A stretch of DNA of 64,000 nucleotides from Mediterraneibacter gnavus ATCC 29149 (GTDB taxonomy: Bacteria; Bacillota; Clostridia; Lachnospirales; Lachnospiraceae): the NCBI RefSeq assembly GCF_008121495.1, contig NZ_CP043051.1, positions 2,313,001-2,377,000 on the forward strand, in the 5' to 3' direction. Position 1 is the stretch's first letter; every line of letters starts with the position of its first letter. A program made the position numbers and the translations under genes. This document shows positions 8,552-26,792 of the stretch, in pieces. The notes under the pieces are model-generated. The model was not told where the DNA came from. It worked only from the letters and a program-made list of their open reading frames with translations, and searched no databases.

Positions 8552-8598
8552 AACATCTGTGGAGAACAAAAAATAAAGTTCTTCACAGATGTTTTTTT
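8552..8598. terminator. Bidirectional terminator between lipoprotein and DtxR-type genes
   Basis: AACATCTGTG and GTTCTTCACAGATGTT form a long stem (8552-8567 with 8578-8593) around an A-rich loop. T7 follows on the plus strand and A-runs precede it, so it can serve both converging genes. Confidence 0.88.
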
Positions 8599-8971: not shown

Positions 8972-9004
8972 TGTATGCACCTCGTTTCTCGTTAAATTGT
9001 CTTT

Positions 9005-9688: not shown

Positions 9689-9901
9689 ATGATGCCTTTG
9701 ACGATGGCAGCAGCAAACGAAATCAATTATATTAAGAAAGTCGGAGGAAACAGTGAAGTGAAACGTCACCTGGAAACTCTTGGATTTGTAGCCGGAGGAG
9801 AAGTGCGGGTGATTTCTCAGTTAAATGGAAATCTGATCGTAAGCATCAAAGATTCCAGAGTCGCGATCAGCAAAGAGATGGCAAACAAGATCATGGTCTA
9901 A
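9689..9901 (+). CDS. feoA: FeoA-domain protein (first copy)
   Basis: 70 residues, SH3-like FeoA fold: VKRHLETLGFVAGGEVRVIS and LIVSIKDSRVAISKEMANKIMV. FeoA proteins are small cytosolic partners needed for Fe2+ uptake by FeoB. GGAAAGGAGA precedes ATG 9689. It is followed by a second FeoA 16 bases on, an arrangement common in Clostridia. Confidence 0.9.
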   Translation: MMPLTMAAANEINYIKKVGGNSEVKRHLETLGFVAGGEVRVISQLNGNLIVSIKDSRVAISKEMANKIMV

Positions 9902-9917
9902 AGGAGGAAGAGGGAAA

Positions 9918-10139
9918 ATGAAGACATTGCGAAATATTGCCGTGGGTGAGACTGCAAAAGTGAAACGACTTCATGGCGAGGGGGCCTTAAAACGCCGTAT
10001 CATGGATATGGGAATTACAAAAGGCAGCCAGGTTTATGTACGCAAGGTGGCTCCACTTGGTGATCCGGTCGAGATCACGATCCGCGGATATGAATTGTCT
10101 TTGCGAAAAGACGATGCGGACTGTATTGAGATGGAGTAA
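9918..10139 (+). CDS. feoA: FeoA-domain protein (second copy)
   Basis: 73 residues, more canonical than the first copy: GETAKVKRLHGEGALKRRIMDMGITKGSQVYVRKVAPLGDP (read in parts) and ITIRGYELSLRKDDADCIEM. AAGGAGGA precedes ATG 9918. It leads directly into feoB (21 bases). Confidence 0.92.
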   Translation: MKTLRNIAVGETAKVKRLHGEGALKRRIMDMGITKGSQVYVRKVAPLGDPVEITIRGYELSLRKDDADCIEME

Positions 10140-10160
10140 AGAAAGGAAAGGGAGAGAGTG

Positions 10161-12470: not shown

Positions 12471-12641
12471 GTGAATGCAGCAACATGTATTATTTTGATC
12501 GTTTTAATTGTAATTGTTTCGTTTTCAATCCGTGCGACGATTCGTGATCGGAAAAAAGGCGGATGTGCAGGGTGCTCCGGATGCGGCGGAAGCTGCAGCG
12601 GATGTCATAGTGAAGTGGAACAGACAAAGAAATCCGAGTAA
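12471..12641 (+). CDS. FeoB-associated Cys-rich membrane protein
   Basis: 56 residues, GTG start preceded by AAGGTGAT. One N-terminal membrane helix (CIILIVLIVIVSFSI) is followed by a basic stretch and a cytosolic Cys cluster GCAGCSGCGGSCSGCH with six Cys in 16 residues. This is the small protein often annotated as FeoB-associated Cys-rich membrane protein in Firmicutes. It may bind iron or an Fe-S cluster at the membrane. Confidence 0.85.
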   Translation: MNAATCIILIVLIVIVSFSIRATIRDRKKGGCAGCSGCGGSCSGCHSEVEQTKKSE

Positions 12642-12718: not shown

Positions 12719-12730
12719 GATAGAAAAATT

Positions 12731-12743
12731 GATAAAATTTATC
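12731..12743. promoter_or_regulatory. AT-rich palindrome upstream of the P-type ATPase operon
   Basis: GATAAAATTTATC is a perfect 6-bp inverted repeat with one central base, followed by CGATAATC. It lies 17 bases before the -35 of the next promoter and resembles half-sites of a Fur box. This is weak evidence alone. Confidence 0.35.
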
Positions 12744-12760
12744 GATAATCGGATTTTTGA

Positions 12761-12789
12761 TTGACGAATGAAAATCAGGGTTCTAGAAT
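12761..12789 (+). promoter_or_regulatory. Promoter of the small-peptide/ATPase operon
   Basis: TTGACG 12761-12766 and TAGAAT 12784-12789 with a 17-base spacer. It lies after the feo terminator and 60 bases before the 26-residue peptide gene, so the ferrosome-like genes have their own promoter. Confidence 0.65.
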
Positions 12790-12848: not shown

Positions 12849-12929
12849 ATGAAACAACACCGATTTTGGGCGTGGGCAACAGTATGCTGCGCAGTAATGG
12901 TATTTTATACCGGTTACAAACATAAGTAA
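12849..12929 (+). CDS. 26-residue conserved-looking micropeptide
   Basis: The short frame reads MKQHRFWAWATVCCAVMVFY followed by TGYKHK. GAAGGGAAAC precedes the ATG. It has one short hydrophobic, aromatic-rich membrane segment between basic ends. I recall very similar tiny proteins beside clostridial metal ATPases (a DUF6219-type annotation), but this is from memory and should be treated as tentative. It lies upstream of the GxxxG protein and the ATPase and is likely co-transcribed with them. Confidence 0.55.
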   Translation: MKQHRFWAWATVCCAVMVFYTGYKHK

Positions 12930-12967
12930 GATAGAAAAAGAGAATCAGTTTACAGGAGGAAGAAAAG

Positions 12968-13282
12968 ATGTTAGATGTATTTAAAATGAAAAAATTAGGG
13001 ATTTTTGCAGGTGGTGTTTTATTCGGGACAGCAGGAGTGAAGCTGTTGTCAAGCAAAGATGCAAAAAAAGTGTATACAAATTGTACAGCTGCAGTGCTTC
13101 GTGCAAAAGATTCTGTTATGAAGACAGCATCCACTGTACAGGAAAATGCAGAAGATATTCTGGCGGAAGCAAAACAGATCAATGAAGAGAGAGCAGCAAA
13201 AGAAGCAGCTCTGGAGCAGGAAGCAGAAGAAGTAACAGAAGAGACAGTGGCAGACAACACAGATTTTGCAGAAGAGGCATAA
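12968..13282 (+). CDS. 104-residue GxxxG-helix protein (DUF6110-like, FezA-like candidate)
   Basis: The N-terminus has a hydrophobic glycine-rich helix, KLGIFAGGVLFGTAGVKLLSS (residues about 9-29), followed by an amphipathic middle (KKVYTNCTAAVLRAKDSVMKTASTVQENAE, in parts) and a very acidic tail rich in Glu and Ala. GGAGGAAGAAAAG precedes ATG 12968. It sits 19 bases before the P-type ATPase gene. Small proteins of this kind precede P1B-6 ATPases in ferrosome (fez) clusters, so a membrane-associated role in iron storage compartments is a hypothesis, not a demonstrated function. Confidence 0.6.
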   Translation: MLDVFKMKKLGIFAGGVLFGTAGVKLLSSKDAKKVYTNCTAAVLRAKDSVMKTASTVQENAEDILAEAKQINEERAAKEAALEQEAEEVTEETVADNTDFAEEA

Positions 13283-13301
13283 GATAAAAAGAGGGATTTG
13301 A

Positions 13302-14456
13302 TTGAAGTTTATAATTAAGCATGAAATACCGGGAAGAATACGGGTGCATATGGTGCAGCCGAAAATGACGTTTGAAGAGGCGGATATTCTGCTGTATTAT
13401 CTCGTAAACCTGGAAAATGTGACAAAAGCAAAAGTATATGAAAGAACACAGGATGCGGTGATCTATTATGAAAAGGACCGGCGGGAAATCATCAAGGCAC
13501 TGCAGAAGTTTGGGTATGATCGGGTGACAGTGCCGGAGGGGCTGACTGAGCATTCCGGAAGGCAGATGAACGCAGAATATCAGGAAAAACTGCTCATGAA
13601 AGTCGTGATGCGTTTTGGTGGGAAGCTTCTGATACCGGCACCGGTACGGGCGGTCTGGACAGGTGTCCGTTCTCTGAAATATCTGCAGCAGGGGATCGCG
13701 AGTCTGAAAAAAGGCAGACTGGAAGTGGCGGCTCTGGATGCCACTGCGATCGGTGTTTCCATCCTGCGCAGAGATATGAATACCGCAAGTTCGATCATGT
13801 TCCTGCTCGGCATCGGAGAATTGCTGGAGGAATGGACACATAAAAAATCTGTCGGAGATCTGGCACGCGACATGTCCCTGAATGTGGGGAAAGTCTGGCT
13901 TTTAAGAGAGGAACAGGAGATTCTTGTTCCCGCAAAACAGATTGAACCGGAAGATCTTGTAGTAGTCTGCATGGGAAATGTGATTCCATTTGATGGAGTC
14001 GTATCCCGTGGTGAGGCAATGGTCAATCAGGCCTCTATGACAGGAGAAGCAGTTCCGGTGAAAAAGACAGCGGAAAGCTATGTATATGCAGGAACTGTTG
14101 TAGAAGAAGGAGAACTGATCATCTGCGTGAAAGCGGTGAGCAAAGCAACCCGTTTTGAAAAAATCGTGACCATGATCGAAGAGTCTGAAAAATTGAAATC
14201 AAATCTGGAAAGTCATGCAGAACATCTGGCAGATCAACTGGTTCCGTATACACTGGCAGGAACGATTCTGACCTGGCTGCTGACAAGAGATGTGACCAAG
14301 GCACTGGCAGTACTGATGGTAGATTTTTCGTGTGCACTCAAGCTGGCGATTCCAATTTCGGTACTGTCTGCGATCCGGGAGGCGGGCGCACATAATATTA
14401 CCGTAAAAGGCGGAAAATATATGGAAGCTGCTGCAAATGCCACAACGATCGTGTTC
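13302..14456 (+). pseudogene. P1B-type ATPase, N-terminal part (gene split by 11-kb element)
   Basis: TTG start at 13302 with GAGGGA 5 bases upstream. 385 host residues remain. They hold an N-terminal HMA-like domain without CxxC, the membrane region, the actuator motif ASMTGEAVP, and the membrane metal motif SCA (Ser343-Cys344-Ala345, SCALKLAIP). The SCA motif marks the P1B-6 subgroup, linked to iron in ferrosome work. Host sequence stops after TTC (Phe385) at the TC core. In the present arrangement the frame runs on into the element for 56 foreign residues to 14627. The missing catalytic domain starts at 25460. Without excision the product has no phosphorylation site and should be inactive. 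Confidence 0.9.
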
Positions 14457-16311
14457 AGTCGGTCATTTTTTGCGGACAGTTCATACATGCTATCCTTTTC
14501 TGTTCTCTGCTCCTGCGTTTGCTCTCGTTTGATTTCTCCCTCCGTATCTTCTTGGCACAAGCAGGACAATACCTTGATGCACCAGAGCCCGGGACATATT
14601 CAACGCCGCACACCGTACAATTTTTAGCGGGCATTGCTGCCCACCGTTTTGTAGGTATGATATGTAATTCATCGACAAAGCCGATGAATTTATAGTAAAT
14701 CTTGATTTCCTGCTTCACTGTTCCGTCTGCCATCTTCTCACGCTCCGAAACAAGTATCTTGTCTATGAGTGCGTTTATAACTGTTGCATCCAGTTCTTTT
14801 AAGCCTTGATAATTTCGGATAAGGGCGAGGAAGTCACGGATTCCCCGTGATTTCTCGTAGCTTTCATTAAGAGTTTCCGTCACCTCTTTCAGCCTTGCTT
14901 CAATTTCAAGCTGCTCTTTCTGGTATTTCCCCGACATCATCTCAAAATTCCGCTCGGTAATACGCTCCATGACCTTATCCTCGTAGAGAGAGGAAAACAG
15001 CCTGTCCAGTTCCGCAAGGCGTTTGTTCAGCTTCTTACGTTCTTTCTCTAATGCTTTCGCCCTGCTCTGGTCTGTTTCCGTGAGCCGCTTTTCTATGGCC
15101 CTGACCGCCTTTTCATCATTCACTGCCATATCCGCAAAACAGTTGATGTCGGCAAGAACGGCATTGAATAAATCCCTTGCTTCTATATTGTGGGCACTAC
15201 ACTCGCTTCTTCCGTTTCTTGCATAATTATTACATGAATACTGTACACAGTCGATAATCTCTGGGCGTTTCCTCCTGTGTACGTTCATTGCCCGCAGAGC
15301 ACATCCGCAGTCCACACACTTGATAACGCCTGCAAAAATATTTACAAATCCTCCCTTGTTCTGTGGAAGCCTACGACTTGTAATAAGCTGTTGGACAATA
15401 TCAAATTCCTCCTGCGTGACTATTCCCTCATGGGTATTGGGTATCACTTCCCATTCTTCGGGCAGCTTAGAGGGGCGTTTCTTGATTTTCATATTGGCGG
15501 CAATCCGTTTGTAGCCTACAAGATTTCCCGCATATATCGGGCTTCTTAAAATGCTCCTCACGCTGTTCCCACTCCAAATATAGCGTTTGTCCTCGTTCCC
15601 CTCAAAATGACGTTCAAAGCCTGTTTCGCCACGCTCCGCCGCATAAGCGGCAGGGCGTAGGATATGCTGTTTATTAAGATGTCTGCAAATTTTGGCAACT
15701 CCATTCCCTTTTAATGCAAGGTCGAATATCTCTTTTACAACATGTGCCACTTTATCATCTATCAGCAGATGGTTGTGGTCGGCAGGGTCTTTGATATAGC
15801 CATAAGGGGCGGTAGTTCCCATGAATTTCCCCTGTTGAAACCTCGCCCGATATGCCGATTTTATCTTAACAGATATGTCAGCGGCATACATTTCGTTTAA
15901 AATGTTGCGGAAAGGCGTGATGTCCATAGCAGATTTATTCAAGGTATCTACGCCGTCATTGACCGCTATATACCTCACGTTATGCTCTGGGAAGAAAACT
16001 TCCAGATATAACCCACAATCAAGATAGTTTCTCCCCAGACGGGATAAATCTTTCGTAATCACGCAGTTTATCAGACCGCTTTCAATGTCTTTTATCATAT
16101 TCTGGAAACTTGGTCTTTGGAAATTTGTACCAGAATAACCATCGTCCACATACGTTTTTGCTATGTGCCATCCCTGCTTTTTCACATAATCCGTGAGGAT
16201 GGATTTCTGTGTCGCAATGCTCGCACTCTCGTTATCCGTACCATCGTCTTTAGATAAGCGGCAATAAATGCCGACTAAATAGATTTTCTTTTCTTCTTTG
16301 ATTCCTGCCAT
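14455..16311 (-). CDS. Large serine recombinase (TnpX-type)
   Basis: 618 residues. The N-terminal resolvase domain has catalytic Ser20 in YCRLSKDD, and DLSRLGRN. The recombinase domain and zinc ribbon (CVDCGCALR and later paired Cys) follow, then a coiled coil rich in Glu/Lys (about 425-500). A second Cys-rich segment (CTVCGVEY, CPACAKK) precedes the end. It catalyses excision and insertion of the element at a TC/GA core. Its stop codon TGA occupies 14455-14457, i.e. two of the three bases are the crossover core itself. The stop therefore survives every recombination event. Confidence 0.94.
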   Translation of the reverse strand: MAGIKEEKKIYLVGIYCRLSKDDGTDNESASIATQKSILTDYVKKQGWHIAKTYVDDGYSGTNFQRPSFQNMIKDIESGLINCVITKDLSRLGRNYLDCGLYLEVFFPEHNVRYIAVNDGVDTLNKSAMDITPFRNILNEMYAADISVKIKSAYRARFQQGKFMGTTAPYGYIKDPADHNHLLIDDKVAHVVKEIFDLALKGNGVAKICRHLNKQHILRPAAYAAERGETGFERHFEGNEDKRYIWSGNSVRSILRSPIYAGNLVGYKRIAANMKIKKRPSKLPEEWEVIPNTHEGIVTQEEFDIVQQLITSRRLPQNKGGFVNIFAGVIKCVDCGCALRAMNVHRRKRPEIIDCVQYSCNNYARNGRSECSAHNIEARDLFNAVLADINCFADMAVNDEKAVRAIEKRLTETDQSRAKALEKERKKLNKRLAELDRLFSSLYEDKVMERITERNFEMMSGKYQKEQLEIEARLKEVTETLNESYEKSRGIRDFLALIRNYQGLKELDATVINALIDKILVSEREKMADGTVKQEIKIYYKFIGFVDELHIIPTKRWAAMPAKNCTVCGVEYVPGSGASRYCPACAKKIRREKSNESKRRSREQKRIACMNCPQKMTD

Positions 16312-16365
16312 ACTGTAAAACCTCCGTATCTGTCCTATCTGTTTTCATGTCCCATTGCGTACATT

Positions 16366-16629
16366 CTAAGCGGACAGCCCCTCATTGTCGAAGGTGTCGC
16401 CCTCGGCAATCTTCTTCCGAATATCCTCGGAGATAATCGGGACAAACGCTTCTGTAACGGTCTGTGTGCCGACATATTCACGGCTGATTATCATCTGCAC
16501 TGGTGCTTTTGGCACGATACGCTTTCTCTTTTTATCTGCTTTCTTATCCTCGCCCATACTTAAATCTTCCTTTCCAGACAGGGCAGGGAAGAGTTTGGAA
16601 ATGTCCCCGCCCTGCCAATCAGATACCAT
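16366..16629 (-). CDS. Small hypothetical protein of the element
   Basis: 87 residues, basic in the centre (KKADKKRKRIVPK) with a C-terminal part VTEAFVPIISEDIRKKIAEG. Its ATG overlaps the stop of the upstream gene (TAATG on the minus strand), pointing to coupled translation. I do not recognise a functional family. Its place, directly ahead of the recombinase gene, suggests an accessory role in the element. Confidence 0.65.
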   Translation of the reverse strand: MVSDWQGGDISKLFPALSGKEDLSMGEDKKADKKRKRIVPKAPVQMIISREYVGTQTVTEAFVPIISEDIRKKIAEGDTFDNEGLSA

Positions 16630-16859
16630 TAATCCTCGCTGTTTAATTCTTTCTGTAATGCTTTAAGGAGTGCCGCCGCTTCATCAGCGTTCAGCGTGAT
16701 TCCCTTGCCGCACTTTTCACGGTTCGGGGAAAAGCTGCGGATGTCATACTTCGGCTCTTTCCCATTCCATGAAATGAGATTGATTTCCTTTGTGTAGCCA
16801 CTGTCGCCCGTAGACAATACTGCGATTTCCTTTACGATTTCATACTGGATTTCTCTCAT
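16629..16859 (-). CDS. YdbC/PC4-like single-strand DNA-binding protein
   Basis: 76 residues. The segment from LISWNGKEPKYDIRSFSPN through KGITLNADEAAALLKAL matches the YdbC branch of the PC4/p15 coactivator family, which bind single-stranded DNA or RNA. It ends in coupled overlap with the next gene. Such proteins are common in clostridial mobile elements and could act in mobilization or replication. Confidence 0.75.
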   Translation of the reverse strand: MREIQYEIVKEIAVLSTGDSGYTKEINLISWNGKEPKYDIRSFSPNREKCGKGITLNADEAAALLKALQKELNSED

Positions 16860-16904
16860 TCTCCATACCTCAACTCTCTGTATTTACTTCCCGAAAAAAG
16901 AAGA

Positions 16905-17759
16905 TTAGCGGCTGTCACGGTTGCGTTTCCTCTGCAACTCACGCTCCAAAAGTTTGATGATGGTTTCCTCCATCTGCTTCGGCGTTGTGTTCTTCGGAAA
17001 GTATTTTTTCAGCTTGCTTGTGTTGATTTTCAAGGTTTCTTTCTGGTTGCCCTTTTCCTCCGTCATAATCGCAAATATCGTATCCATGTCAAGCCGCCCG
17101 CTCTGGCTTAACTGTTTCATCCGCTGTGCCTGTGAGAGTGAGGGCGTTGCTTCTTCGCTCTCCATCGTGGCAAAGAGGTTTTCCTGCTCGTCTTTCTTCA
17201 AGAAGGACAGTTCCACCGCAGGCGTGAGGGCGATTTTCCCCTCGTCCACCATCTGCAAAATCGGCGGTATCAGTTCCGTCAGGCGGATAAAACGCTGCAC
17301 GGTCATCCTGCCCACGCCGAAGCCCTGTGCCACCTTGTCGTCCGTCCGCAACTTCGTCACAACTTGTGACGAGGTTAAGTCTGTGCGGAAACCCTGCCGC
17401 TTCATGGCTTCGGATTTCATCTTGTAAGCAAACGCCCGCTCCGATGGCAGGATATTCTCACGCTGCAAATTGCTGTCTACAAGGGTGATGATGGCTCGGT
17501 CACGGTCTAAGGGCAGGACAAACGCAGGCACGGTATTTATCCCTGCAAGTTCAGAAGCACGGACACGCCGCTGTCCTGCAATCACTTCATAACCGTCCCC
17601 GTCCTCTTTCGGGCGTGTGATTATCGGCGTGACAATGCCAAATTCCTTGATGCTTTCCGCTAACTCTGACAGTGTTTCATCTTCTGCCACATGAAACGGA
17701 TTGTCGGGGAACGGGTACAAGTCTTTGGTCTTTAACACCTTAAAATCCTGTTTCTTCAT
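16905..17759 (-). CDS. ParB/Spo0J-family partition protein
   Basis: 284 residues. ParB N-domain motifs are visible: LSELAESIKEFGIVTPIITRP, YEVIAGQRRVRASELAGI (the GERR-like box) and a central helix-turn-helix (QGFGVGRMTVQRFIRLTELIPPI, in parts). The C-terminus is short and basic. No ParA is encoded beside it, so it may be a regulator or CTP-switch clamp on its own. It starts 8 bases after the relaxase stop. Confidence 0.88.
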   Translation of the reverse strand: MKKQDFKVLKTKDLYPFPDNPFHVAEDETLSELAESIKEFGIVTPIITRPKEDGDGYEVIAGQRRVRASELAGINTVPAFVLPLDRDRAIITLVDSNLQRENILPSERAFAYKMKSEAMKRQGFRTDLTSSQVVTKLRTDDKVAQGFGVGRMTVQRFIRLTELIPPILQMVDEGKIALTPAVELSFLKKDEQENLFATMESEEATPSLSQAQRMKQLSQSGRLDMDTIFAIMTEEKGNQKETLKINTSKLKKYFPKNTTPKQMEETIIKLLERELQRKRNRDSR

Positions 17760-17767
17760 TCACATAT

Positions 17768-18733
17768 CTACCTTTCTTTCGCTCTGCTTCTATGATTTTT
17801 CTGCAATTCTTCCAACACTTCGGGCGGTATTTTTGACAGCAGCCGCCCCATCTGCTCGTTGGTTCTCTGCAATTCAAATATCTTCTGATTCGCTTTCTGC
17901 ACCTTTAGTTCCTGCTCGTACTTTTCATCACGCATACGCCCCGCATAGTCTGATTCCTGCCCAATTCTCTCTTTCAAACTGTCGATATACGCCTGCTGTT
18001 TCCCGATTTCCTTAGAGAATTTCTCCACGTCTGGCAGCCATGCAGAGAGTAAATCTAACGCTTTATCCCTTTTCTTCCCTGCGTTAAAGGCGTTGATGTC
18101 GGATAGGGCAGACACGATTTCTTCATACTGTTTATCAAGCCTGCCGCCTAATTTATAGAGCCATGTGGGGACGTGTTTCCGCTTGGTTTCCATTGAGGAC
18201 TGCCCCCGTTCAAGCTGATTCCACCGTGAGGACATCCGCTCATGGTAGGCGGTCTGCCACTCGGATAATGATTTCTGGTTGCCTAAGATAGCTTTCGCTG
18301 ACAGCTTATTGTCTGGCGTAATCGGCACAAAGCAGAGGTGCATATGGGGCGTTCTCTCGTCCATATGGACGACAGCGGAGAGGATATTCTGCTTTCCAAC
18401 ACGCTCCGAAATGAAGTCAAGAGCCGTCTGGAAATACGCTTTTTGTTCTTCGGGCGGTAACTGGTTCATAAATTCTGGTGAAGCTGTGATGAGCGTTTCC
18501 ACCATCATCACGCTGTCTTTCCTTGTCCTGCACCCCGCTTCGGCTACCATGCGGTTAATCTCTTTCTTGTAGGTGTACTTTGGTGGTGCTATGAGATGGT
18601 AATTGTTTTTAGAGCGTTCCATATCTATATCTGGGTTGCTTTTGTAGGCTTCTTTCTTCCGCTCGTTGTGGCGTTCACAAGCCGCAACGCCGCCCGCTTT
18701 TCGTTTCTGGAAACGCAGGATTGCATAAGGCAT
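17768..18733 (-). CDS. MobV-family relaxase (Pre/Mob; TnpZ-like)
   Basis: 321 residues. The start MPYAILRFQKRK and NNYHL are typical of the Pre/Mob (MobV) family. The metal-binding triad is visible as His123, His130 and His132 in VVHMDERTPHMHL. A long coiled coil makes up the C-terminal third. It nicks the element at oriT and pilots the strand during mobilization by a helper. The frame is open for 57 further codons upstream, but GGAGGA lies 8 bases before ATG 18733 and the upstream part is made of DNA repeats, so 18733 is the start. A nic site of its family lies at 19029-19038. Confidence 0.92.
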   Translation of the reverse strand: MPYAILRFQKRKAGGVAACERHNERKKEAYKSNPDIDMERSKNNYHLIAPPKYTYKKEINRMVAEAGCRTRKDSVMMVETLITASPEFMNQLPPEEQKAYFQTALDFISERVGKQNILSAVVHMDERTPHMHLCFVPITPDNKLSAKAILGNQKSLSEWQTAYHERMSSRWNQLERGQSSMETKRKHVPTWLYKLGGRLDKQYEEIVSALSDINAFNAGKKRDKALDLLSAWLPDVEKFSKEIGKQQAYIDSLKERIGQESDYAGRMRDEKYEQELKVQKANQKIFELQRTNEQMGRLLSKIPPEVLEELQKNHRSRAKER

Positions 18734-18773
18734 AGGCGGATTCCTCCTTTCTTTCGGCGGGTGACCGTCCTTT

Positions 18774-18899
18774 GGGGTGACAGCGGTGACGGTGGTGACA
18801 GCAGTTTTGGGATACCCCCTGCCGACTGCCGCAACTGTCACCCTCACCCCCTGCATGACGGTCATGTCGATGATGACGGTGTTTTTGGGATACCCCCCT
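18774..18899 (+). repeat. Iteron-like repeats A and B (direct orientation)
   Basis: Copy A spans 18774-18820: units of GGTGACRGY, then TTTTGGGATACCCCCT. Copy B spans about 18853-18899: ATGACGG-type units, then TTTTTGGGATACCCCCCT. Both point towards the relaxase-distal side. They match repeats C and D (19178-19319) in opposite orientation. Confidence 0.8.
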
Positions 18900-19014
18900 C
18901 GCAAGAGCCGTCACCGTCATGCCGCCATTCTTTTATCCGAAGCCGTAAGGCGTAGGATAGCAGGGCACAGCCCTGCCTTAAGGGAGTCCAGAGGGAACGT
19001 CTGGCACACGACTT

Positions 19015-19084
19015 TGCAGGGCAAAGTGTAGTGTGTTACACCCTGTAAACGCAGTCGGAAAAATCGGAATGATTTTTCTGACCG
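19015..19084 (+). other. Putative origin of transfer with MobV nic site
   Basis: TAGTGTGTTA at 19029-19038 equals the nick region of the pMV158 MobM oriT (TAGTGTG/TTA). It sits in the loop of an inverted repeat GTGTA (19026-19030) and TACAC (19037-19041). The predicted nick is between 19035 and 19036. A second hairpin follows: GTCGGAAAAATC 19054-19065 with GATTTTTCTGAC 19071-19082. The MobV relaxase gene is 282 bases away. Confidence 0.82.
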
Positions 19085-19177
19085 CAGGGGTGGTTTTACA
19101 CGACCGAAAAGGGCGAGTAAATCTCACGCCTGCATTTTGCGTTTACGGGGTGTTCTCCCGTAGGGATGACAGCGGCA

Positions 19178-19319
19178 GGGTATCCTAAAATCACTGTCAC
19201 CACCGTCACTGCTGTCACCCGCAGGGCAGAGCCGCCAGCTTTACATGGCTTTAAGCGTCAATGACAGTAACAGGGGGGTATCCTAATATCGCTGTCACCA
19301 CCATCACCGCTGTCACCCG
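19178..19319 (-). repeat. Iteron-like repeats C and D (inverted relative to A and B)
   Basis: Copy C spans 19178-19222 and copy D 19273-19319. On the minus strand D reads GGGTGACAGCGGTGATGGTG, then a TGACAG unit and GGATACCCCCC, almost identical to copy A. D lies inside the 3' end of the RepA-like gene and encodes its GDSGDGGDS tail. Confidence 0.8.
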
Positions 19320-20283
19320 CCCTCCTTGCAAGGGCAATCCGCCTGCCGTCTTTCCTGCGGCTGTACTGGTAGCAGATACGGTTCTCGCTTAAAAATGTGG
19401 TGCGGTATTCATTCAGCCATTTCGTAATCACCGTGGGTATGGTTTCCGTTTCCCCCATAGCGGCTAACAGTTCCGTTGCCGTGCCTATCCATTCTTCCTT
19501 ATCCCTCATAAAATCCACCAACCGAAAAAGGACATCTGGTATCGTTTCTTTCGCAAGCTGCTCCTGCGTTTTCCGCTCCACAAGCTCCCAACGGCAATCA
19601 CGGAAACGCAGCGTGTATTCCTGATAAGGCGTGTCCCTGCCCGTCACATACAGCTTGGCGGTGTCAGACGCACGTTTCTCCTTTTCCAGAACAAAGGTAG
19701 CGTCCGCACTCCCCGTTAATCCTGTCGTCCCAGACACCTTGTTGAACACGTCGCTGTCATTCTGCTTTCGGATGTGGTGTACGACAATGACCGCCAGAGA
19801 GTGCCTGTCGGCAAAGTCTTTGATGAGGGAGATGTCCCCATAGTCGCTTGCATAGGCATTGTCTTTTGAAGCTGTACGGACTTTCTGCAAGGTATCAATG
19901 ACAATGAGCCTGCTGTCTGGGTAATCTTTCAGATAATCTTCAAGCTGCACGATAAGACCGTCTGACAGCTTGCAGCTTGCCACGGCAAAGTGGAGCCGCC
20001 CGCTTGCTTCGTCCGTCAAACGAAATAACCTGTCCTGTATGCGGCAGAACGTGTCCTCAAGGCAGAGGTAAAGCACATCGCCCTCCATTGTCGGCATATC
20101 CCATAAAGGGATTCCCTGCGACACGCATAAGCATAGCTTCAGCATGAGCCAGCTTTTGCCTATCTTCTGTGAGCCGCAGAACAGCGATAAGCCTGTCGGG
20201 ATAAGGCTGTCCACCACAAAGGATGGTTTCTCAAGCGGTTCATAAAGGAGCGTTTCGGCGTTGACTGTCTGTAACTTCTGCAT
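19258..20283 (-). CDS. RepA-like AAA/RecA-fold ATPase
   Basis: 341 residues. Walker A is GSQKIGKSW near residues 37-45, Walker B is RLIVIDTL near 125, and a VVHHIRKQ sensor segment follows, as in RepA/DnaB-type helicases of mobile elements (AAA_25). The C-terminal part contains a winged-helix-like region. The last ~15 residues are encoded by iteron repeat D, so the coding sequence and origin-like DNA overlap. It probably unwinds or replicates the excised circle. Confidence 0.83.
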   Translation of the reverse strand: MQKLQTVNAETLLYEPLEKPSFVVDSLIPTGLSLFCGSQKIGKSWLMLKLCLCVSQGIPLWDMPTMEGDVLYLCLEDTFCRIQDRLFRLTDEASGRLHFAVASCKLSDGLIVQLEDYLKDYPDSRLIVIDTLQKVRTASKDNAYASDYGDISLIKDFADRHSLAVIVVHHIRKQNDSDVFNKVSGTTGLTGSADATFVLEKEKRASDTAKLYVTGRDTPYQEYTLRFRDCRWELVERKTQEQLAKETIPDVLFRLVDFMRDKEEWIGTATELLAAMGETETIPTVITKWLNEYRTTFLSENRICYQYSRRKDGRRIALARRAGDSGDGGDSDIRIPPCYCH

Positions 20284-20912
20284 GGCTTTCCTCCTTTCGG
20301 GCGGTGTCTTTGTTTTCGTTGCACATAGGCGTTGACCTCCTTAAAAATAGATTTACTCCCACGGAAAAAAGTGAGAGTATGTAATGCCGCCAATCCCACA
20401 CAAATAAAAAACAGATTTCTATTTCGGGCGGTGTCGGTCACGGTTGGAGATATTTCTTCAATTTCCGCCTTTACTTTCTCCTTTGCAATCGCAACAGATT
20501 TCTGTATTGCCGAAGCGGTGCAATGCTCCATAGCGGCGATTTGGTAAAAATTGAACTCATACTCGTAGTAGAGCAGGAAACGCCGCCTTTGTATCTCTGG
20601 AAGGCTCCCAACCGCCTTATAGAGCGTTTCATTCCGTTCTTCCTCAACCATGCGTTCATCAAGGCTCTTAGGCACACGCAACGCCCGTCTGTAAAGGGTT
20701 TCGTCCCATACCTCGTTAAACTCCCTGTGCCGCTCGTCCCATTAGAAAAGATTCCTGTTCCTGCGCTCCATCTGCCGAAACTCCATAAAGAACTGTTCCG
20801 ACACTTCCAACTCGTGGGATTTGCCCTGCCCGTCCTTAAAGCTGATAAAATACCTTGTGCCGCTTTCCGTGGATTCCTCCCGAAGCGTGTATGCCTTAAC
20901 CCTGTATGCCAT
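20160..20912 (-). pseudogene. Sigma-70-like regulator gene with an in-frame stop
   Basis: ATG 20912 is preceded by AGGAGGACAACAGG. The frame reads MAYRVKAYTLREES... to RRNRNLF, then TAA at 20742-20744, then continues in the same frame with WDERHREFNEVWDETLYRRA and a sigma region 4-like part (SLPEIQRRRFLLYYEYEFNFYQIAAME, in parts; AIQKSVAIAKEKVKAEI). A single substitution (CAA to TAA would fit) explains the break. The frame runs on to 20160, overlapping the RepA-like start by 124 bases. The tail after KAEIEE looks atypical, so the 3' end may also be altered. Confidence 0.7.
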
Positions 20913-20995
20913 CCTGTTGTCCTCCTGCAAAAAATGAGTGAGGGGATTTCCATCCCTCACCCAGTAGCCCGCAGGATGGCAGGCTGTTTTAGAAG

Positions 20996-21421
20996 CTATA
21001 AAATTTTCCGCAGCTTCTTCCGCAGATGGTCTAACCTCGCATAGATGGCACCAGTCGTCAAATGCACAAGCGGGGCAATCTCCTTTGTGGAATACCCCTG
21101 CATTTTCAGCAGGACGATTTTCAAGGTACGCCCGTCCACCGTGACTAATACTTGATAGAGATTTTCGCTCTCAATCTCTTCCAGTAACTCCGCAACCGTA
21201 CCCACTTCCGCCTGCCGCTCCCTGCCTGCCATGTCCTCAAGATATTCCGCAACGTCATTCGTCCATCGGTAAAACCGCCTGTTGGAATTGAAGTCTGCCC
21301 TGTCCGCCATGCGTATCTGCTCAATGGTCGCTTCATCAACGCCGCACTCACGCAGCAGCTTTTCCTCCGCTTCTTTCCAGATACGCCATTTCCTGTCCTC
21401 CCGTCCGTGGTTGTATGCCAT
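20996..21421 (-). CDS. Sigma-70 region 4-like regulator of the element
   Basis: About 141 residues from ATG 21421, which has GGAGGAAG 6-8 bases upstream (a further upstream GTG/ATG would overlap that site). The N-terminal part is charged and helical. The C-terminal helix-turn-helix reads VLLKMQGYSTKEIAPLVHLTTGAIYARLDHLRKKLRKIL in parts, like sigma region 4. It probably controls expression of the element's transfer or excision genes. Confidence 0.75.
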   Translation of the reverse strand: MAYNHGREDRKWRIWKEAEEKLLRECGVDEATIEQIRMADRADFNSNRRFYRWTNDVAEYLEDMAGRERQAEVGTVAELLEEIESENLYQVLVTVDGRTLKIVLLKMQGYSTKEIAPLVHLTTGAIYARLDHLRKKLRKIL

Positions 21422-21463
21422 TCTTACTTCCTCCAATCAGAATTGATTGAGAGGGCAGAGAAA

Positions 21464-21501
21464 AGCCCCCTCATCTTCCCAAAGGAAAAAACAAGGGGGC
21501 T
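21464..21501 (-). terminator. Terminator after the minus-strand sigma-like gene
   Basis: On the minus strand AGCCCCC (plus 21495-21501) pairs with GGGGGCT (plus 21464-21470), followed by TTTTCT. It separates the 170-residue regulator from the 141-residue one. Confidence 0.65.
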
Positions 21502-21515
21502 GAACGCCTTAAATT

Positions 21516-22028
21516 TTAATTTTCTATTATCTTTCTTAGTTTTATTAGGATTCTGGCTTTGCGTTTGTTTACAACGCTCTGGGTTATGCCCAACCTCGCC
21601 CCGACTTCACGCTCGGAAAGTCCGTCAAAAAAGATTGCCTGTATCAGCTCCTGTTCACTATCCGACAGCAAAGGCAGGGCGGCTTTCAGCCTGTCCACCA
21701 TGACCGCATTGACAACGGTTTCTGCAATGTCCACCGCTTCATCAGTGATAAAGTCCAGAGGATTCCCCTCGCTGTCCGTAAATCCGTCGAGAGATAGCAG
21801 TCTATTCTTTGTATCTAATTTTTGCAGATAACGCCACCGTTCCTTGTCACGGTAGAAGTCTGTGTATTGCTCCCTCACGACTTCAAGCAGACAGCCTTGA
21901 ATGGGGATAAACAGCTTGTCCATATAGGTCTGGTCGGATTCCCTGCAACGGCAGAACTCCGTGTAGGATAATTCCACATAGCCGCCACTTTCTCTGATAT
22001 ATACCTTTCTTGGTGCATATTTCACCAT
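21516..22028 (-). CDS. Sigma-70 family-like regulator of the element
   Basis: About 170 residues from ATG 22028, preceded by GGGAGGTATTT. N-terminal VKYAPRKVYIRESGGYVELSY, a CRCRESDQTYMDK segment, and a C-terminal region 4 helix-turn-helix (LSDSEQELIQAIFFDGLSEREVGARLGITQSVVNKRKARILIKL, in parts). Similar regulators accompany clostridial Tn4451/ICE backbones. No region 2 is complete enough to call a classic sigma factor. Confidence 0.78.
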   Translation of the reverse strand: MVKYAPRKVYIRESGGYVELSYTEFCRCRESDQTYMDKLFIPIQGCLLEVVREQYTDFYRDKERWRYLQKLDTKNRLLSLDGFTDSEGNPLDFITDEAVDIAETVVNAVMVDRLKAALPLLSDSEQELIQAIFFDGLSEREVGARLGITQSVVNKRKARILIKLRKIIEN

Positions 22029-22467
22029 AAATACCTCCCATCTGAATTTTTGAAATGTAAAAAATCCAGATGGAGAGGCGGAGAACGACACCGCATATCA
22101 GAAACAGCCCTACGGCACTTTCCAACAAAAATCGACAAAAGAAAAACCGCAAAGGCTCTGTGACCTTTACGGTTATAGGAAATAGTAATTCTATTGTATG
22201 GAGATTGTACTTCTACTTTCAAGGTGAGAAGTACCGTTGCACTGGCAGAAATTTTTTTAACTGGTTTCCTGCCGTTCTCTGATATGCTATGTATTGATAA
22301 ATTTTGCTTCGTATGAGCAGATAGATAACTGCCCGAAAAAAGGACATAAAAAAATCCCTCCAAATTTAAAAACAAATTCAGAGGGTAATTTAGGGTATAA
22401 CAAAATAACCCACCCGAATATCGTTTTTTTTATTTGGTGAGTTTGTTCTTTCAAATACGAAACAAAA
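22029..22467. other. Non-coding stretch between sigma-like gene and KTR gene
   Basis: No gene seen. It holds a minus-strand terminator-like hairpin at 22356-22385 (CCCTC-AAATTT with AAATTC-GAGGG, followed on the minus strand by T7) and an inverted repeat GTACTTCT/AGAAGTAC at about 22207-22233 that may be a regulator site before the sigma-like gene. Confidence 0.55.
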
Positions 22468-22510
22468 AGAGCCGATGATTCGTGAATTGTTCCACAATTT
22501 CATCGGCTCT
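22468..22510 (-). terminator. Terminator of the tet(O)-KTR transcript
   Basis: AGAGCCGATGA (22468-22478) and TCATCGGCTCT (22500-22510) form a perfect 11-bp stem. On the minus strand it is followed by TTTTTG, six bases after the KTR stop codon. Confidence 0.88.
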
Positions 22511-22515
22511 GCGTC

Positions 22516-22689
22516 TTAAGCGTCTGGCTCTTTGATGACAGTTATCTTCAAGTTGTCAACTTTAATCAATCTTTCTTGTCTGCATTTTGGACAATAAAGG
22601 GGATAATTCTCCAAAACAGTGTCCTTCCTAATTTTATTACGGGTTTTGCTCCCACAAACAGGACACAATATCCATTCGCATTTCATCAT
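22516..22689 (-). CDS. Cysteine-rich KTR-domain small protein
   Basis: 57 residues from ATG 22689: MMKCEWILCPVCGSKTR, NKIRKDTVLENYPLYCPKC, and a basic end. CPVCG and CPKC form a zinc-ribbon-like pair. The KTR protein regularly accompanies tet genes in Firmicute elements. Its function is unknown to me. It lies 52 bases after tet(O) and shares its terminator. Confidence 0.85.
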   Translation of the reverse strand: MMKCEWILCPVCGSKTRNKIRKDTVLENYPLYCPKCRQERLIKVDNLKITVIKEPDA

Positions 22690-22740
22690 AATTAGTCTCT
22701 AATCCTTTCAAATCTCATTTTATATGACTTTTGCAAGCTG

Positions 22741-24660
22741 TTAAGCTAACTTGTGGAACATATGCCGAACCTTATCTATACGGCTATTCGGGCGGCGGGG
22801 TTGGCAAATAAATTTACCAATAGCTGGCTGGTATCCTTTTAACTCTGTCAAGCAGACTCCCTGCCCATTTGTGAAATAAGTTAAATCGTTCCTGTATTCT
22901 TGAATACATCTAGCAGGGATTTCTCCTTTCAGAATGACCTCGTCATTCTTTATCTGAGTACTTACAATATCTGCACAATACCTTGGAGCATCATGATACG
23001 CCCGTGAGAGATATTCCTGCGGTGCATAAATTTCAAAGTGGAGATATGGCTCTAATAGTTCTGTCCCTGCTTTTTTTAAAGCCTGCTCCAATACGATAGG
23101 GGAAAGCAGCCGAAAGTCTGCGGGGGTACTTACAGGACTATAATACAATCCATATTCAAAACAGATTTTACAGTCTGTCACTTTCCATCCATACAGCCCC
23201 TGCTCGCAGCCATAAAGAACCCCCTCCATAACCGCATTTTGGAACGATTGATTTAAATATCCAAGTGAAACTCTGCTTTCATACTGCACTCCGCTTCCAA
23301 TAGGGAGCGGCTCTATGGACAACCCGACAGAAGCCCAGAAAGGATTTGGCGGGACTTCTATGTGGATGGTATATTCTGCTTTTCTAAGCGGTCTTTCCAT
23401 ATATATAACAGTAGGCTCTTTTATTTCTGCCTCCACATGATATTTTTCCTCAAGGATGGCACAAATGACTTCCATCTGCACATTCCCCAAAAAAGAAAGT
23501 ATAATCTCATGCGTTGTAGTATCCACATAATATTTTAAAAGAGGGTCGCCATCTGAAATTTCTGTAAGTGCCCCAAGCAATATTTCCCGCTGTTCAGATT
23601 TCTTTACTGCAATCGTTGTTTGGAGCATAGGGAGAGGATTTTCAATAAATTTTCTCTGCGGCAACAGTATTTCGTTCCCCAAAATACTGTTTAGCTGCAA
23701 AACATCATTTGGTAAAATTACAATATCACCAGAGCAGGCTGTATCGGATGAATATAATTCACCGTTTGTCGGAACACACATCTCTGTGATTTTTATTTTC
23801 TCTTTTTCAGATATTCTAATAACATCCCTCAAATGCAATGTTCCGCTATATATACGCACATAAACAAAACGCCGCCTTTTCTCTGAATATTCAATCTTAA
23901 AAACCTGCCCGCATAGTTCAGATTGACCTTCAGGCGTTGATGAATAAAATTTACTGGCAATTACTTCTATAAGCTGCCGAATCCCCAGATTGTTTTTAGC
24001 GCTTCCGTGATAAACGGGAAATAACGTTCCGTTTTGGAATCTCCTGTTTTCTTCCTGTTCCAGTTCTGACATTTTAAACGGTTTCCCTGACATATATTTC
24101 TCTAATAGTTCATCGTTTCCCATAATTACCGCATCCCACTGTTCCATATCGTCATTGTCCGTTACATTTATATGGGGATGCTGCCCAACCTTTTGCTTCA
24201 CTATAATTTCCGAAGAAAGCTTTGCTTTCATTTCCCGATATACCATTGGCAAATCAATCCCCTCTTGGTCAATTTTATTGATGAAAAAAATTGTCGGAAT
24301 CTTCATTATCTGTAGTGCATGAAACAGTATACGGGTCTGTGCCTGTATGCCATCCTTTGCAGAAACTAATAATACTGCTCCGTCTAATACGGATAAAGAA
24401 CGGTATACTTCCGCCAAAAAATCCATATGGCCTGGCGTATCTATAATGTTGACTTTTACATCCTCCCACTGAAAAGATGTCACTGCTGTCTGGATAGTGA
24501 TTCCCCTTTGACGCTCCAAATTCATTGTATCTGTCCTTGTTGTGCCTTCATCTACGCTCCCTAGTTCTGCAATTGCACCACTGGTATACAATAAACTTTC
24601 CGTTAATGTTGTCTTTCCTGCGTCAACGTGAGCCAGAATGCCTAAGTTAATTATTTTCAT
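22741..24660 (-). CDS. tet(O): Tetracycline resistance ribosomal protection protein Tet(O)
   Basis: 639 residues, the exact Tet(O) length. It starts [20 protein letters not shown] with G1 AHVDAGKT (10-17), then DTPGH (G3) and NKID (G4). The whole sequence matches Tet(O) as I remember it, with only scattered differences, and differs clearly from Tet(W) and Tet(M). It is an EF-G-like GTPase that removes tetracycline from the 30S subunit. AGGAGGAAAATCAC precedes the ATG. Expression is governed by the leader peptide and attenuator upstream. Which Tet(O) variant, or whether it is mosaic, needs an alignment. Confidence 0.96.
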
Positions 24661-24701
24661 GTGATTTTCCTCCTATCAACACCCAAAAAAGGGCATAAAA
24701 A

Positions 24702-24733
24702 TACCCAGTGATAAATACTCCTATCACTGGGTA
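24702..24733 (-). terminator. tet(O) leader attenuator hairpin
   Basis: TACCCAGTGATA (24702-24713) and TATCACTGGGTA (24722-24733) form a perfect 12-bp stem with an 8-base loop. On the minus strand TTTTTATGCCCTTTTTTGGG follows. This is the conserved terminator of the tet(M)/tet(O) leader, at which transcription stops unless drug-slowed translation of the leader alters folding. Confidence 0.88.
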
Positions 24734-24884
24734 AATAACTCCAATAGCCCCAAAACACTTATATGTTTTCGGGCATATAAAATTACATGATAAAAGTATT
24801 CTTAAACTGGGTACAAAAAACTAAGCCCCATATTAAAAGTGAAACGGGACTGCTACTTTTTGTTCCCACTATCAAATTGACAGT

Positions 24885-24908
24885 TTATTTAAGAATACCT
24901 TGCCGCAT
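24885..24908 (-). CDS. tet(O) leader peptide, 7 residues
   Basis: The minus strand reads MRQGILK and a TAA stop, preceded by AAGGAGTTAATAAAT. Bases around its end (CTTAAATAAACTG) can pair with CAGTTTAAG about 75 bases downstream, as expected of an attenuation leader. Confidence 0.7.
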   Translation of the reverse strand: MRQGILK

Positions 24909-24940
24909 ATTTATTAACTCCTTGTATAATACTGAATCTA

Positions 24941-24969
24941 ATTATATTCCTTAACCCTTTATTTGTCAA
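24941..24969 (-). promoter_or_regulatory. Promoter of tet(O)
   Basis: On the minus strand TTGACA (24964-24969) and TATAAT (24941-24946) are consensus and separated by 17 bases. The transcript then has a leader of roughly 270 bases before tet(O). Confidence 0.9.
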
Positions 24970-25026
24970 GCTGACAAACTAAAGCAGAAAAAGCGGCAGG
25001 ATTTCCCCCTGCCACTAATCATCTGT

Positions 25027-25401
25027 TTATGCAAAAATAATTTCCTTTTCCACAATCTCCCTCGCACAAGCCCTTATGTTATTGAGGCATCCTGTCCATT
25101 CTAAGGCGTTTTCTGCCTTTAGCTGTTCCGTTATGCCCTGTGCCTGTTTCATACCCTCTATGAGCCTTTCAAAGCGTTCCTGTGCCTGTCTGTTGATGTC
25201 GGCAAGGTAGGCGTTTAGCCTGCCGCTTGTAAGAAGATTGGTGTATGTAACTTTACGGTACTGTTTTAGATAATCTAAATGCCGTTGCCCCCAGATGCCT
25301 ATTGCCTGTTCTTCTTCGGCGGGTACAGTTAAGCACGGTATCAAATAATCCCCTTGCCTTTCGTATTTGCCGCCCAGTTCCTCAAATAATGATTTTGCCA
25401 T
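25027..25401 (-). CDS. tnpV: TnpV transposon protein
   Basis: 124 residues: SLFEELGGKYERQGDYLIPCL, IGIWGQRHLDYLKQYRKVTYTNLLTSGRLNAYLADINRQAQER (in parts) and a terminal AREIVEKEIIFA. This is the TnpV family, named from Tn4451. Its function is not established. GGAGGTAACAGACA precedes the ATG. It lies at the right end of the element, 56 bases from the core. Confidence 0.88.
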   Translation of the reverse strand: MAKSLFEELGGKYERQGDYLIPCLTVPAEEEQAIGIWGQRHLDYLKQYRKVTYTNLLTSGRLNAYLADINRQAQERFERLIEGMKQAQGITEQLKAENALEWTGCLNNIRACAREIVEKEIIFA

Positions 25402-25459
25402 TGTCTGTTACCTCCACATTCTTTTTTATTTTGAATGTCCGCAAAATCCGTCCTACATC

Positions 25460-26386
25460 GATAAGACGGGGACACTCACAGAGGCGCGACCGACGGTACG
25501 AAAGGTGGTTTCTTTCTGTGAGCAGAGTGAGGATGAGCTGCTGAGAATGGCGGCCTGTCTGGAGGAACATTTTCCACATTCCATGGCAAAGGCTGTTGTG
25601 GAAGCCGCCAGAAAAAGAGGGCTGGAGCATGAAGAGATGCACAGCAAGGTCAATTATATTGTTGCACATGGAATTTCCTCCACGATCGAAGGAAAACGCG
25701 TGGTGATCGGAAGTCATCATTTTGTATTCGAAGATGAAAAATGCTCGGTCAGAGAACCGTGGATCCGACAGTTTGAAACACTTCCGGAAGAATGTTCTCT
25801 GCTCTATCTTGCCATTGAGCATGAGCTTGCTGCAGTTGTATGTATTGAAGATCCGCTGCGCAAAGAAGCGGCAGATGTAGTGCGTGCTTTGAAGGCAACA
25901 GGGCTTGAGAAAGTCGTGATGATGACAGGAGACAGTGAAAAAACAGCTGCTTCTGTGGCGAGAAGAGTTGGTGTGGATGCATATTATTCAGAAGTGCTGC
26001 CTGAGGATAAGGCAAAATTTGTGGAACAGGAGCGCGCATCCGGCCGTACGGTGATTATGATCGGCGACGGGATCAACGATTCTCCGGCATTGTCGGCAGC
26101 AAATGTGGGAATTGCAATTCGTGACGGTGCGCAGATCGCACAGGAAATTGCGGATATCACAATCTCGGCAGAAAACTTGTGGGAAATCGTAATGTTGAGA
26201 AGATTAAGCGAGGCGCTGATGCGGCGTATCCAGAAAAATTACAGAAGCATTGTCGGGATCAATGCTACTTTGATACTGCTTGGAGTCACAGGAATCCTGC
26301 AGCCTACGACGTCTGCACTGCTTCATAATATGTCTACGCTGACGATCAGCCTGACCAATATGAAAAACTTACTGGATGAAAACTAG
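25460..26386 (+). pseudogene. P1B-type ATPase, C-terminal catalytic part (gene split by element)
   Basis: 308 host residues starting exactly at the phosphorylation motif DKTGTLTEARPTV (Asp386 of the intact 693-residue protein). The nucleotide-binding domain (HFPHSMAKAVVEAA, GISS), the TGDSEKTA motif, and GDGINDSPALSAANVGIAI of the P domain are intact, as are the last membrane helices. No substitutions that break the frame are seen. It has no ribosome site of its own; an upstream frame enters it from the element. Clean excision would restore the gene. Confidence 0.9.
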
Positions 26387-26469: not shown

Positions 26470-26504
26470 AAACGGGAACACACAGGAAAATTCAGGAGGT
26501 GCGT

Positions 26505-26792
26505 ATGAGTATTGTTATTATCGGAGGACATGACCGAATGGTCTGTCAGTATAAAAAAGTATGTCAGAAATATCAGTGTAAAGCAAAAGTGTTCACACAG
26601 ATGTCAGGAAATCTGTCCAAAAAGATAGGAACTCCGGATCTGGTCGTTTTATTCACAAACACTGTTTCGCACAAAATGGTGCGGTGTGCAGTGGAAGAAG
26701 CAGGCCGCTGCAATGCAGAGATCATCCGCTGCCATACAAGCAGCAAAAACGCACTGGAAGATATCCTGGAAACTGCCTGTGCAGCAGTGTAA
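26505..26792 (+). CDS. DUF2325-type small protein, probably metal-regulated
   Basis: 95 residues: MSIVIIGGHDRMVCQYKKVC, a TPDLVVLFTNTVSHKMVRCAVEEA segment and IIRCHTSSKNALEDILE. The IVIIGGHDR start and VSHKMV match DUF2325. AGGAGG at 26494-26499 selects ATG 26505. Five Cys and conserved His suggest metal or redox binding. Its promoter carries the third copy of the operator found at the feo genes, so it belongs to the same iron-responsive regulon. Confidence 0.75.
   Translation: MSIVIIGGHDRMVCQYKKVCQKYQCKAKVFTQMSGNLSKKIGTPDLVVLFTNTVSHKMVRCAVEEAGRCNAEIIRCHTSSKNALEDILETACAAV

What the first reader, a model, noticed from the sequence alone, without database searches (positions are those of the whole stretch)
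12849..26386. Candidate ferrosome (fez) locus, disrupted by a resistance element
A tiny aromatic peptide, a 104-residue protein with a GxxxG-rich membrane helix and acidic tail, and an ATPase with TM motif SCA (P1B-6 subgroup) lie together, under their own promoter, next to feo. P1B-6 ATPases with small membrane-associated proteins form iron-storage ferrosomes in Desulfovibrio and Clostridioides difficile. If correct, this strain has lost ferrosome formation unless the element excises, giving a reversible, tet(O)-linked switch of iron storage.
Basis: inference. Interest (0 to 1): 0.82.

Follow-up and report, generated by a model that had tools for sequence, protein, structure and literature searches.

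The report
Iron-organelle genes split by resistance element
A gut bacterium carries relatives of the gene pair that builds iron-storing compartments in Clostridioides difficile, plus a conserved 26-residue membrane peptide, but its iron-pump gene is cut in two by a tetracycline-resistance element.

Summary
The 104-aa protein is DUF6110 (Pfam E 1.5e-39). The split ATPase has SCA-K and HN motifs, an N-terminal Arg motif and no CPC; each half, treed apart, groups with intact DUF6110-linked ATPases and with the Clostridioides pair, away from seven CPC-type pumps. In three Clostridioides genomes the ATPase beside DUF6110 is the only SCA-K one among 29 P-type ATPase places, so DUF6110 is very probably FezA. 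The 26-aa ORF is a real gene (69 of the 80 closest relatives; pN/pS 0.17) but accessory: 8 of 20 loci in a wider sample, where the ATPase follows DUF6110 in 20 of 20. A Fur-box-like palindrome and a promoter-like pair precede it. The insert is an 11,005-bp tet(O) element with a large serine recombinase, the same but for 2 bases on two E. faecalis plasmids and found in other genes of other genomes: a generic insertion that severs the pump just before its catalytic Asp. Predicted: no ferrosomes in this strain. New: a conserved micro-peptide in the fez operon, and a link between ferrosome FezA and the 'PacL-like' DUF6110 proteins.

The parts
9689..12332 (+). feoA, feoA, feoB (neighbouring ferrous iron uptake genes; context)
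   Evidence: ORFs; FeoB TIGR00437 E 4e-167. FeoB lies upstream on the same strand in 46 of 73 relatives that hold at least 3 kb of upstream DNA
12471..12641 (+). FeoB-associated Cys-rich membrane protein (context)
   Evidence: PF12669 E 3.6e-9
12730..12744 (+). Fur-box-like palindrome, 3 mismatches to the recalled consensus TGATAATNATTATCA
   Evidence: 40 of 79 relatives have a site with 3 or fewer mismatches in the 300 bases upstream, against about 3.1 expected from dinucleotide shuffles
12761..12789 (+). sigma-70-like promoter pair TTGACG-17-TAGAAT
   Evidence: consensus match only
12849..12929 (+). 26-aa single-helix membrane peptide, like one half of DUF6219
   Evidence: 69 of 80 relatives; pN/pS 0.17; PF19727 E 2.2e-4, under its cut-off
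12968..13282 (+). fezA-like protein, DUF6110
   Evidence: PF19605 E 1.5e-39; 63% identity over 73 residues to the Clostridioides DUF6110 protein, E 4e-32
13302..14454 (+). fezB-like P1B-6 ATPase, N part (Arg motif, transmembrane SCA-K motif, actuator domain)
   Evidence: the frame runs on into the element to 14627
14455..25459 (.). mobile element with tet(O), 11,005 bp, bounded by TC at both ends
   Evidence: same stretch with 2 mismatches on E. faecalis plasmids LR962153.1 and LR962508.1
14455..16311 (-). large serine recombinase of the element
   Evidence: Resolvase, Recombinase, Zn ribbon and DUF4368 domains
17768..18904 (-). mobilisation protein (Mob_Pre) of the element
   Evidence: PF01076 E 1.8e-59
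22741..24660 (-). tet(O), tetracycline resistance ribosomal protection gene
   Evidence: elongation-factor domains; plasmid copies annotated tet(O) by AMRFinderPlus
25460..26386 (+). fezB-like P1B-6 ATPase, C part (from DKTGT to the HN motif)
   Evidence: PF00702 E 2.7e-26; 58% identity over 306 residues to the Clostridioides ATPase

Best explanation
This is a fez (ferrosome) operon of a Mediterraneibacter-type gut bacterium: a 26-aa membrane peptide, fezA (DUF6110) and fezB (P1B-6 ATPase), beside feo and probably repressed by Fur when iron is plentiful. In intact relatives FezA would organise the membrane of the iron compartment and FezB would pump ferrous iron into it, as reported for C. difficile. 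Here a tet(O)-bearing element, inserted by its own large serine recombinase, cuts fezB just before the catalytic Asp: one half keeps the metal path without the phosphorylation domain, the other the reverse. The pump, and hence ferrosomes, should be absent in this strain. Shown: gene identities by homology, the break point, the element. Inferred: function, Fur control, loss of ferrosomes.
For: DUF6110 E 1.5e-39. ATPase halves treed apart fall with DUF6110-linked ATPases; seven CPC-type pumps form another group at 100/100. Motifs in 76 intact relatives: SCA-K in at least 75, HN near the C end in 75, Arg motif in 74, CxxC in the first 100 residues in 1. Clostridioides: DUF6110 once in 6 of 8 genomes, an ATPase behind it in the 4 regions read, and in 3 genomes the only SCA-K ATPase among 29 P-type places. 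Papers (passages): C. difficile fezA/fezB = CD630_05920/05910, adjacent hypothetical protein and ATPase, both required for ferrosomes and repressed by Fur; DUF6110 typically goes with P1B6 ATPases, and HN in TM6 is a P1B6 feature. In 20 of 20 further family loci an SCA-K ATPase follows DUF6110. Fur-like box.
Against: No iron, microscopy or expression data. 2 of 8 Clostridioides genomes lack DUF6110. Other work files DUF6110 as PacL-like efflux-platform proteins. The Fur box is a consensus match; in the 20-locus sample only 7 of 20 have a site with 3 or fewer mismatches within 700 bases.
Confidence: 0.78

Rival explanations
1. The operon is a metal-efflux platform: a PacL-like DUF6110 scaffold with a P1B-6 pump that exports excess iron or another metal from the cell, with no storage organelle.
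For: Two papers relate DUF6110 to PacL proteins of mycobacterial efflux platforms and suggest platform assembly with P1B6 ATPases (passages). The FezA model, one membrane helix and a long helix, would suit either role.
Against: The C-terminal metal-binding motif and DUF1490 of PacL are absent (no His in the tail), the CPC motif of CtpC-like pumps is absent, and the nearest studied relatives, in Clostridioides, are by inference FezA and FezB, reported to store iron.
Confidence: 0.15
2. An ordinary Cu or Zn/Cd exporter with a small partner protein.
For: The best curated model is the general heavy-metal P1B subfamily, which names no metal; Cd and Cu models also match.
Against: No CPC and no CxxC; HN motif present; the tree separates it from seven CPC-type pumps at 100/100, though with a long-branch warning.
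Confidence: 0.03
3. The element is a regulated switch that turns iron storage off and on by leaving and entering fezB.
For: Precise ends, no target sequence lost (relative L009 aligns to residues 12-395 in the N part and 397-701 in the C part), intact-looking recombinase.
Against: Of 16 insertion ends read, only this one is in an ATPase gene; the element is practically identical on E. faecalis plasmids, which speaks for recent spread. No second case in fezB was seen.
Confidence: 0.04

Closest known systems
fezAB (fezXAB) of Clostridioides difficile
   Same: Small DUF6110-type membrane protein followed by an SCA-K ATPase of about 700 aa, N-terminal Arg motif, HN motif, Fur-box-like site upstream in 3 of 4 loci read.
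   Different: No 26-aa peptide in the four Clostridioides loci; not next to feo within the stretches read; here fezB is interrupted. FezX could not be compared (paper not held).
PacL (DUF1490) / Ctp efflux platforms of mycobacteria, and 'PacL-like' DUF6110 proteins
   Same: Small membrane protein with a Glu/Ala-rich cytoplasmic part encoded before a P1B ATPase; the papers call DUF6110 related.
   Different: No metal-binding motif in the tail, no CPC in the ATPase, DUF6110 rather than DUF1490.
KdpF and similar single-helix partners of P-type ATPases
   Same: A peptide of about 30 aa with one helix, encoded with a P-type ATPase (PMC3618439, abstract in search listing).
   Different: No sequence relation tested or claimed; interaction with FezB is only proposed.
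IME_Rho_tet, tetracycline-resistance mobilisable elements of gut Bacillota
   Same: About 11 kb with serine recombinase, relaxase and a ribosomal protection gene (PMC12904643, passages).
   Different: That family mostly carries tet(W) or tet(32), with tet(O) very rare; sequence membership was not tested here.
DUF6219 (PF19727)
   Same: The 26-aa peptide resembles one half of it; a full-length member reads as two tandem copies.
   Different: The peptide is under the Pfam cut-off and has one unit only.

Membership tests
ferrosome (fez) system | P1B-6 ATPase: SCA-K motif (label recalled) and HN motif in the last part (PMC9374683, passage) | tested here: met
   FSCALK in the N part, HN in the C part; 75 of 76 intact relatives have HN; tree
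ferrosome (fez) system | small membrane protein FezA encoded next to FezB and homologous to the C. difficile one | tested here: met
   DUF6110, 63% over 73 residues to the Clostridioides protein; that this is FezA is inferred
ferrosome (fez) system | Arg motif in place of a Cys metal-binding domain at the ATPase N terminus (recalled) | tested here: met
   PGRIRVH, no CxxC in the first 100 residues; HMA_2 only weak, E 0.0036
ferrosome (fez) system | repression by Fur and iron | tested here: inconclusive
   Fur-box-like site at 12730-12744, recurring upstream in 40 of 79 relatives against 3.1 expected; no expression data
ferrosome (fez) system | intact FezA and FezB, both needed for ferrosomes | tested here: not met
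   fezB is cut by the element in this strain; intact-looking copies in 76 of 80 relatives
ferrosome (fez) system | membrane-bound iron phosphate granules | not testable with these tools
   needs electron microscopy
PacL/Ctp efflux platform | DUF1490 domain and C-terminal metal-binding motif | tested here: not met
   Pfam finds DUF6110, not DUF1490; the tail has no His
PacL/Ctp efflux platform | ATPase with CPC motif plus HN | tested here: not met
   HN present, SCA-K in place of CPC
Cu or Zn/Cd P1B exporter | CPC or like motif, and grouping with such pumps | tested here: not met
DUF6219 | Pfam gathering score over the 69-position model | tested here: not met
   21.5 against 27 bits, positions 1-25 only

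The most novel reading that the evidence does not exclude
The 26-aa peptide is a lineage-specific micro-subunit of the ferrosome pump: a single helix that packs against FezB or FezA, as KdpF or sarcolipin does with its P-type ATPase, and tunes iron loading or compartment formation. DUF6219 proteins are its tandem-duplicated form, used elsewhere in iron and peroxide control. And the 'PacL-like' efflux-platform proteins and ferrosome FezA are one family, DUF6110, so platforms and organelles may be two outcomes of one assembly principle.
Probability: 0.35. Interest if true: 0.68.

Novelty: new variant of a known kind. Interest (0 to 1): 0.52.

Why it matters
Ferrosomes are known in few organisms, and a 2025 review asks whether other pathogens or commensals have them (PMC12574912, passage). 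DUF6110, very probably FezA, occurs in 164 of 397 sampled genomes of the window's family, so this form of iron storage may be common among gut commensals. The conserved 26-aa peptide gives a handle on how a P1B-6 pump may be regulated, and this strain is a natural fezB-null for comparison with intact relatives.

Tried and rejected
Rejected: ordinary Cu/Zn exporter. A second SCA-K ATPase in the own genome: none among the 10 of 11 P-type ATPases read (and the window); the eleventh, an 887-aa frame, was not read. Another small membrane ORF in place of the peptide in loci that lack it: 26 loci scanned with an RBS and hydropathy filter, four hits in four loci, none alike, one of them FeoA-like by reading. 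A short ORF upstream of the Clostridioides DUF6110 gene is open in two loci and not found in the other two, so it was not taken as a gene. Solved structures: no useful match to the 104-aa protein. Ferritin family in the own genome: 3 weak matches (E 4e-6 to 7e-5), not followed. The GH3 protein downstream gave no strain identity. Print searches in the held library: the peptide's letters, no paper; DUF6219, none of the 16 listed papers; PacL with ferrosome, one unrelated cancer review. Supplements were not searched.

Limits of the counts: the 80 relatives are the best 80 of 496 by likeness to the window's 104-aa protein, so 69 of 80 overstates how common the peptide is; 8 of 20 is fairer. L062 holds 16 bases upstream, so it could not show the peptide. 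In the genus search the peptide hits are weak single matches (E 1e-5 to 7e-3), under the Pfam cut-off.

Full report
What is there. The window lies in a one-contig genome of 3.55 Mb. Three genomes of its genus hold contigs of the same lengths as records titled Mediterraneibacter glycyrrhizinilyticus, Ruminococcus turbiniformis and Clostridium sp. Marseille-P3244, so the host is probably a Mediterraneibacter in the GTDB sense, and its family Lachnospiraceae (inference). After feoA-feoA-feoB and a FeoB-associated Cys-rich protein come a 26-aa ORF (12849-12929), a 104-aa ORF (12968-13282) and an ATPase in two parts, 13302-14454 and 25460-26386.

The 104-aa protein is DUF6110 (E 1.5e-39). Over 82 aligned rows (window, 80 relatives, one Clostridioides) F13, G16, F19, G20, L27, K34, A41, L44, N60, D63, A68 and N72 are conserved at 1.00 after rounding. 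AlphaFold gives helices 4-27 and 30-98 with moderate confidence (pLDDT 72.3, pTM 0.29).

The ATPase. Each part was handled alone. Pfam: E1-E2 ATPase in the N part, HAD hydrolase in the C part; both best match the general heavy-metal P1B model. In trees of 40 and 32 rows both parts fall among DUF6110-linked ATPases of relatives, nearest to L009 (74% and 79% identity), with the Clostridioides ATPases in the wider group, while seven CPC-type pumps of the own genome and of Clostridioides form another group at 100/100. The tree tool warned of long branches. Motifs in 76 intact relatives are given. Of the 11 P-type ATPase places of the own genome, 10 were read and only this one has SCA-K (and the window).

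Is it fez? The two founding papers are not held. Passages of other papers say that C. difficile fezA and fezB are CD630_05920 and CD630_05910, which an iron study lists as a hypothetical protein and an ATPase with positive values, the former marked '+' in a column that I take for Fur boxes, and that both are required for ferrosomes and repressed by Fur. DUF6110 occurs once in 6 of 8 genomes of that genus. Four of the six regions were read, each with an ATPase behind it. In three genomes all 29 listed P-type ATPase places were read; one in each carries SCA-K, and it is the one beside DUF6110. In G451 the gene lies near 0.71 Mb on the minus strand, which fits the locus numbers roughly (inference). 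I take the pair as fezAB. The window's DUF6110 is 63% identical to it over 73 residues, the ATPase parts 56% and 58% over 384 and 306.

Spread. DUF6110 is in 48 of 58 genomes of the genus, own included, 164 of 397 sampled of the family and 29 of 391 sampled of the class, 24 over the cut-off. In 20 hand-picked family loci an SCA-K ATPase frame of at least 600 aa follows in 20 of 20. FeoB lies upstream on the same strand in 46 of 73 relatives with at least 3 kb of upstream DNA.

The 26-aa peptide. It is in 68 of the 80 closest relatives by an upstream scan and in one more by a whole-locus scan. Over 62 unique DNA sequences, window included, encoding 48 proteins, pN/pS is 0.17 and differences by codon position are 9669, 5288 and 23299; an RBS-like string precedes 62 of 68; the gap to fezA is 1-79 bases in 67 of 68 and 267 in one. 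In the genus, 45 of 51 hits of the DUF6219 model lie within 500 bp of DUF6110, and 45 of 49 DUF6110 places have one. In the wider family sample 8 of 20 loci have it. Among the 30 class loci it is in five besides the window's own (L115, L118, L119, L120, L140; four genomes of four other families), and in none of the four Clostridioides loci. It is a real but accessory gene. A full-length DUF6219 protein (L188) reads as two tandem copies of the unit, beside PerR-like and rubrerythrin-like ORFs (by reading).

Control region. A Fur-box-like palindrome (12730-12744) precedes a promoter-like pair (12761-12789). Sites with 3 or fewer mismatches occur in 40 of 79 relatives against about 3.1 expected from shuffles; often near 110 bases before the peptide. 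Three of four Clostridioides loci have one with 2 mismatches, the fourth only 4. In the 20-locus sample 7 of 20 have one, without a shuffle control.

The element. 14455-25459 is 11,005 bp with TC at both ends; the same stretch with 2 mismatches lies on two E. faecalis plasmids, with other flanks, the only 2 of 840 matching plasmid records that hold at least 80% of it in one place. It encodes a large serine recombinase, Mob_Pre, ParB-like, AAA, PC4-like, sigma-like and TnpV proteins and Tet(O). Among 397 family genomes the 1,857-bp recombinase stretch is full length at 100% in nine others and in two large pieces at 100% in two more; six show only end pieces of 53-130 bases at 100%; relatives at 82-88% also occur. 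Of 16 left ends read by eye, only the window's is in an ATPase gene; 7 of the other 15 lie at one helicase-like motif. So the recombinase is not specific for fezB.

Function. The insert parts the metal path from the phosphorylation and nucleotide domains, so the pump should be dead, and since both proteins are required in C. difficile this strain should make no ferrosomes (inference). Intact-looking ATPases are seen in 76 of 80 relatives; of the other four, three end at a contig end and L034 has a 514-aa frame without DKTGT. The main rival is a PacL-like efflux platform: two papers place DUF6110 there, and neither mentions ferrosomes. Microscopy of intact relatives decides.

Noticed in passing
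L188:1468-1707: A full-length DUF6219 protein reads as two tandem copies of the 26-aa unit and lies beside PerR-like, rubredoxin-like and rubrerythrin-like ORFs, which hints at iron or peroxide control.
   Followed up: partly
L034: Faecalicatena contorta ET55: the ATPase frame after DUF6110 is 514 aa, with SCA-K but without DKTGT, perhaps an independent loss.
   Followed up: no
14455-25459: The tet(O) element is the same but for 2 bases on two E. faecalis plasmids, a sign of recent spread between distant hosts.
   Followed up: partly
L209, L212, L215, L218, L219, L221, L222: In 7 of 15 other left ends the element or its relative sits at one helicase-like motif (EQ-x-x-GRI), so its recombinase may have a preferred site (by reading).
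   Followed up: no
26499-26792: A DUF2325 protein follows fezB; in 80 relatives it is found downstream on the same strand in 10 and upstream in 6.
   Followed up: partly
12343-12465: A 40-aa membrane-like ORF between feoB and the FeoB-associated protein, with only a sub-threshold match to DUF6007.
   Followed up: no
8597-8980: A divergent MntR/DtxR-like regulator, beside a Fur-family gene at 9131-9565, opens the iron gene block; a Fur-family relative is found upstream on the same strand in 53 of 80 relatives.
   Followed up: partly
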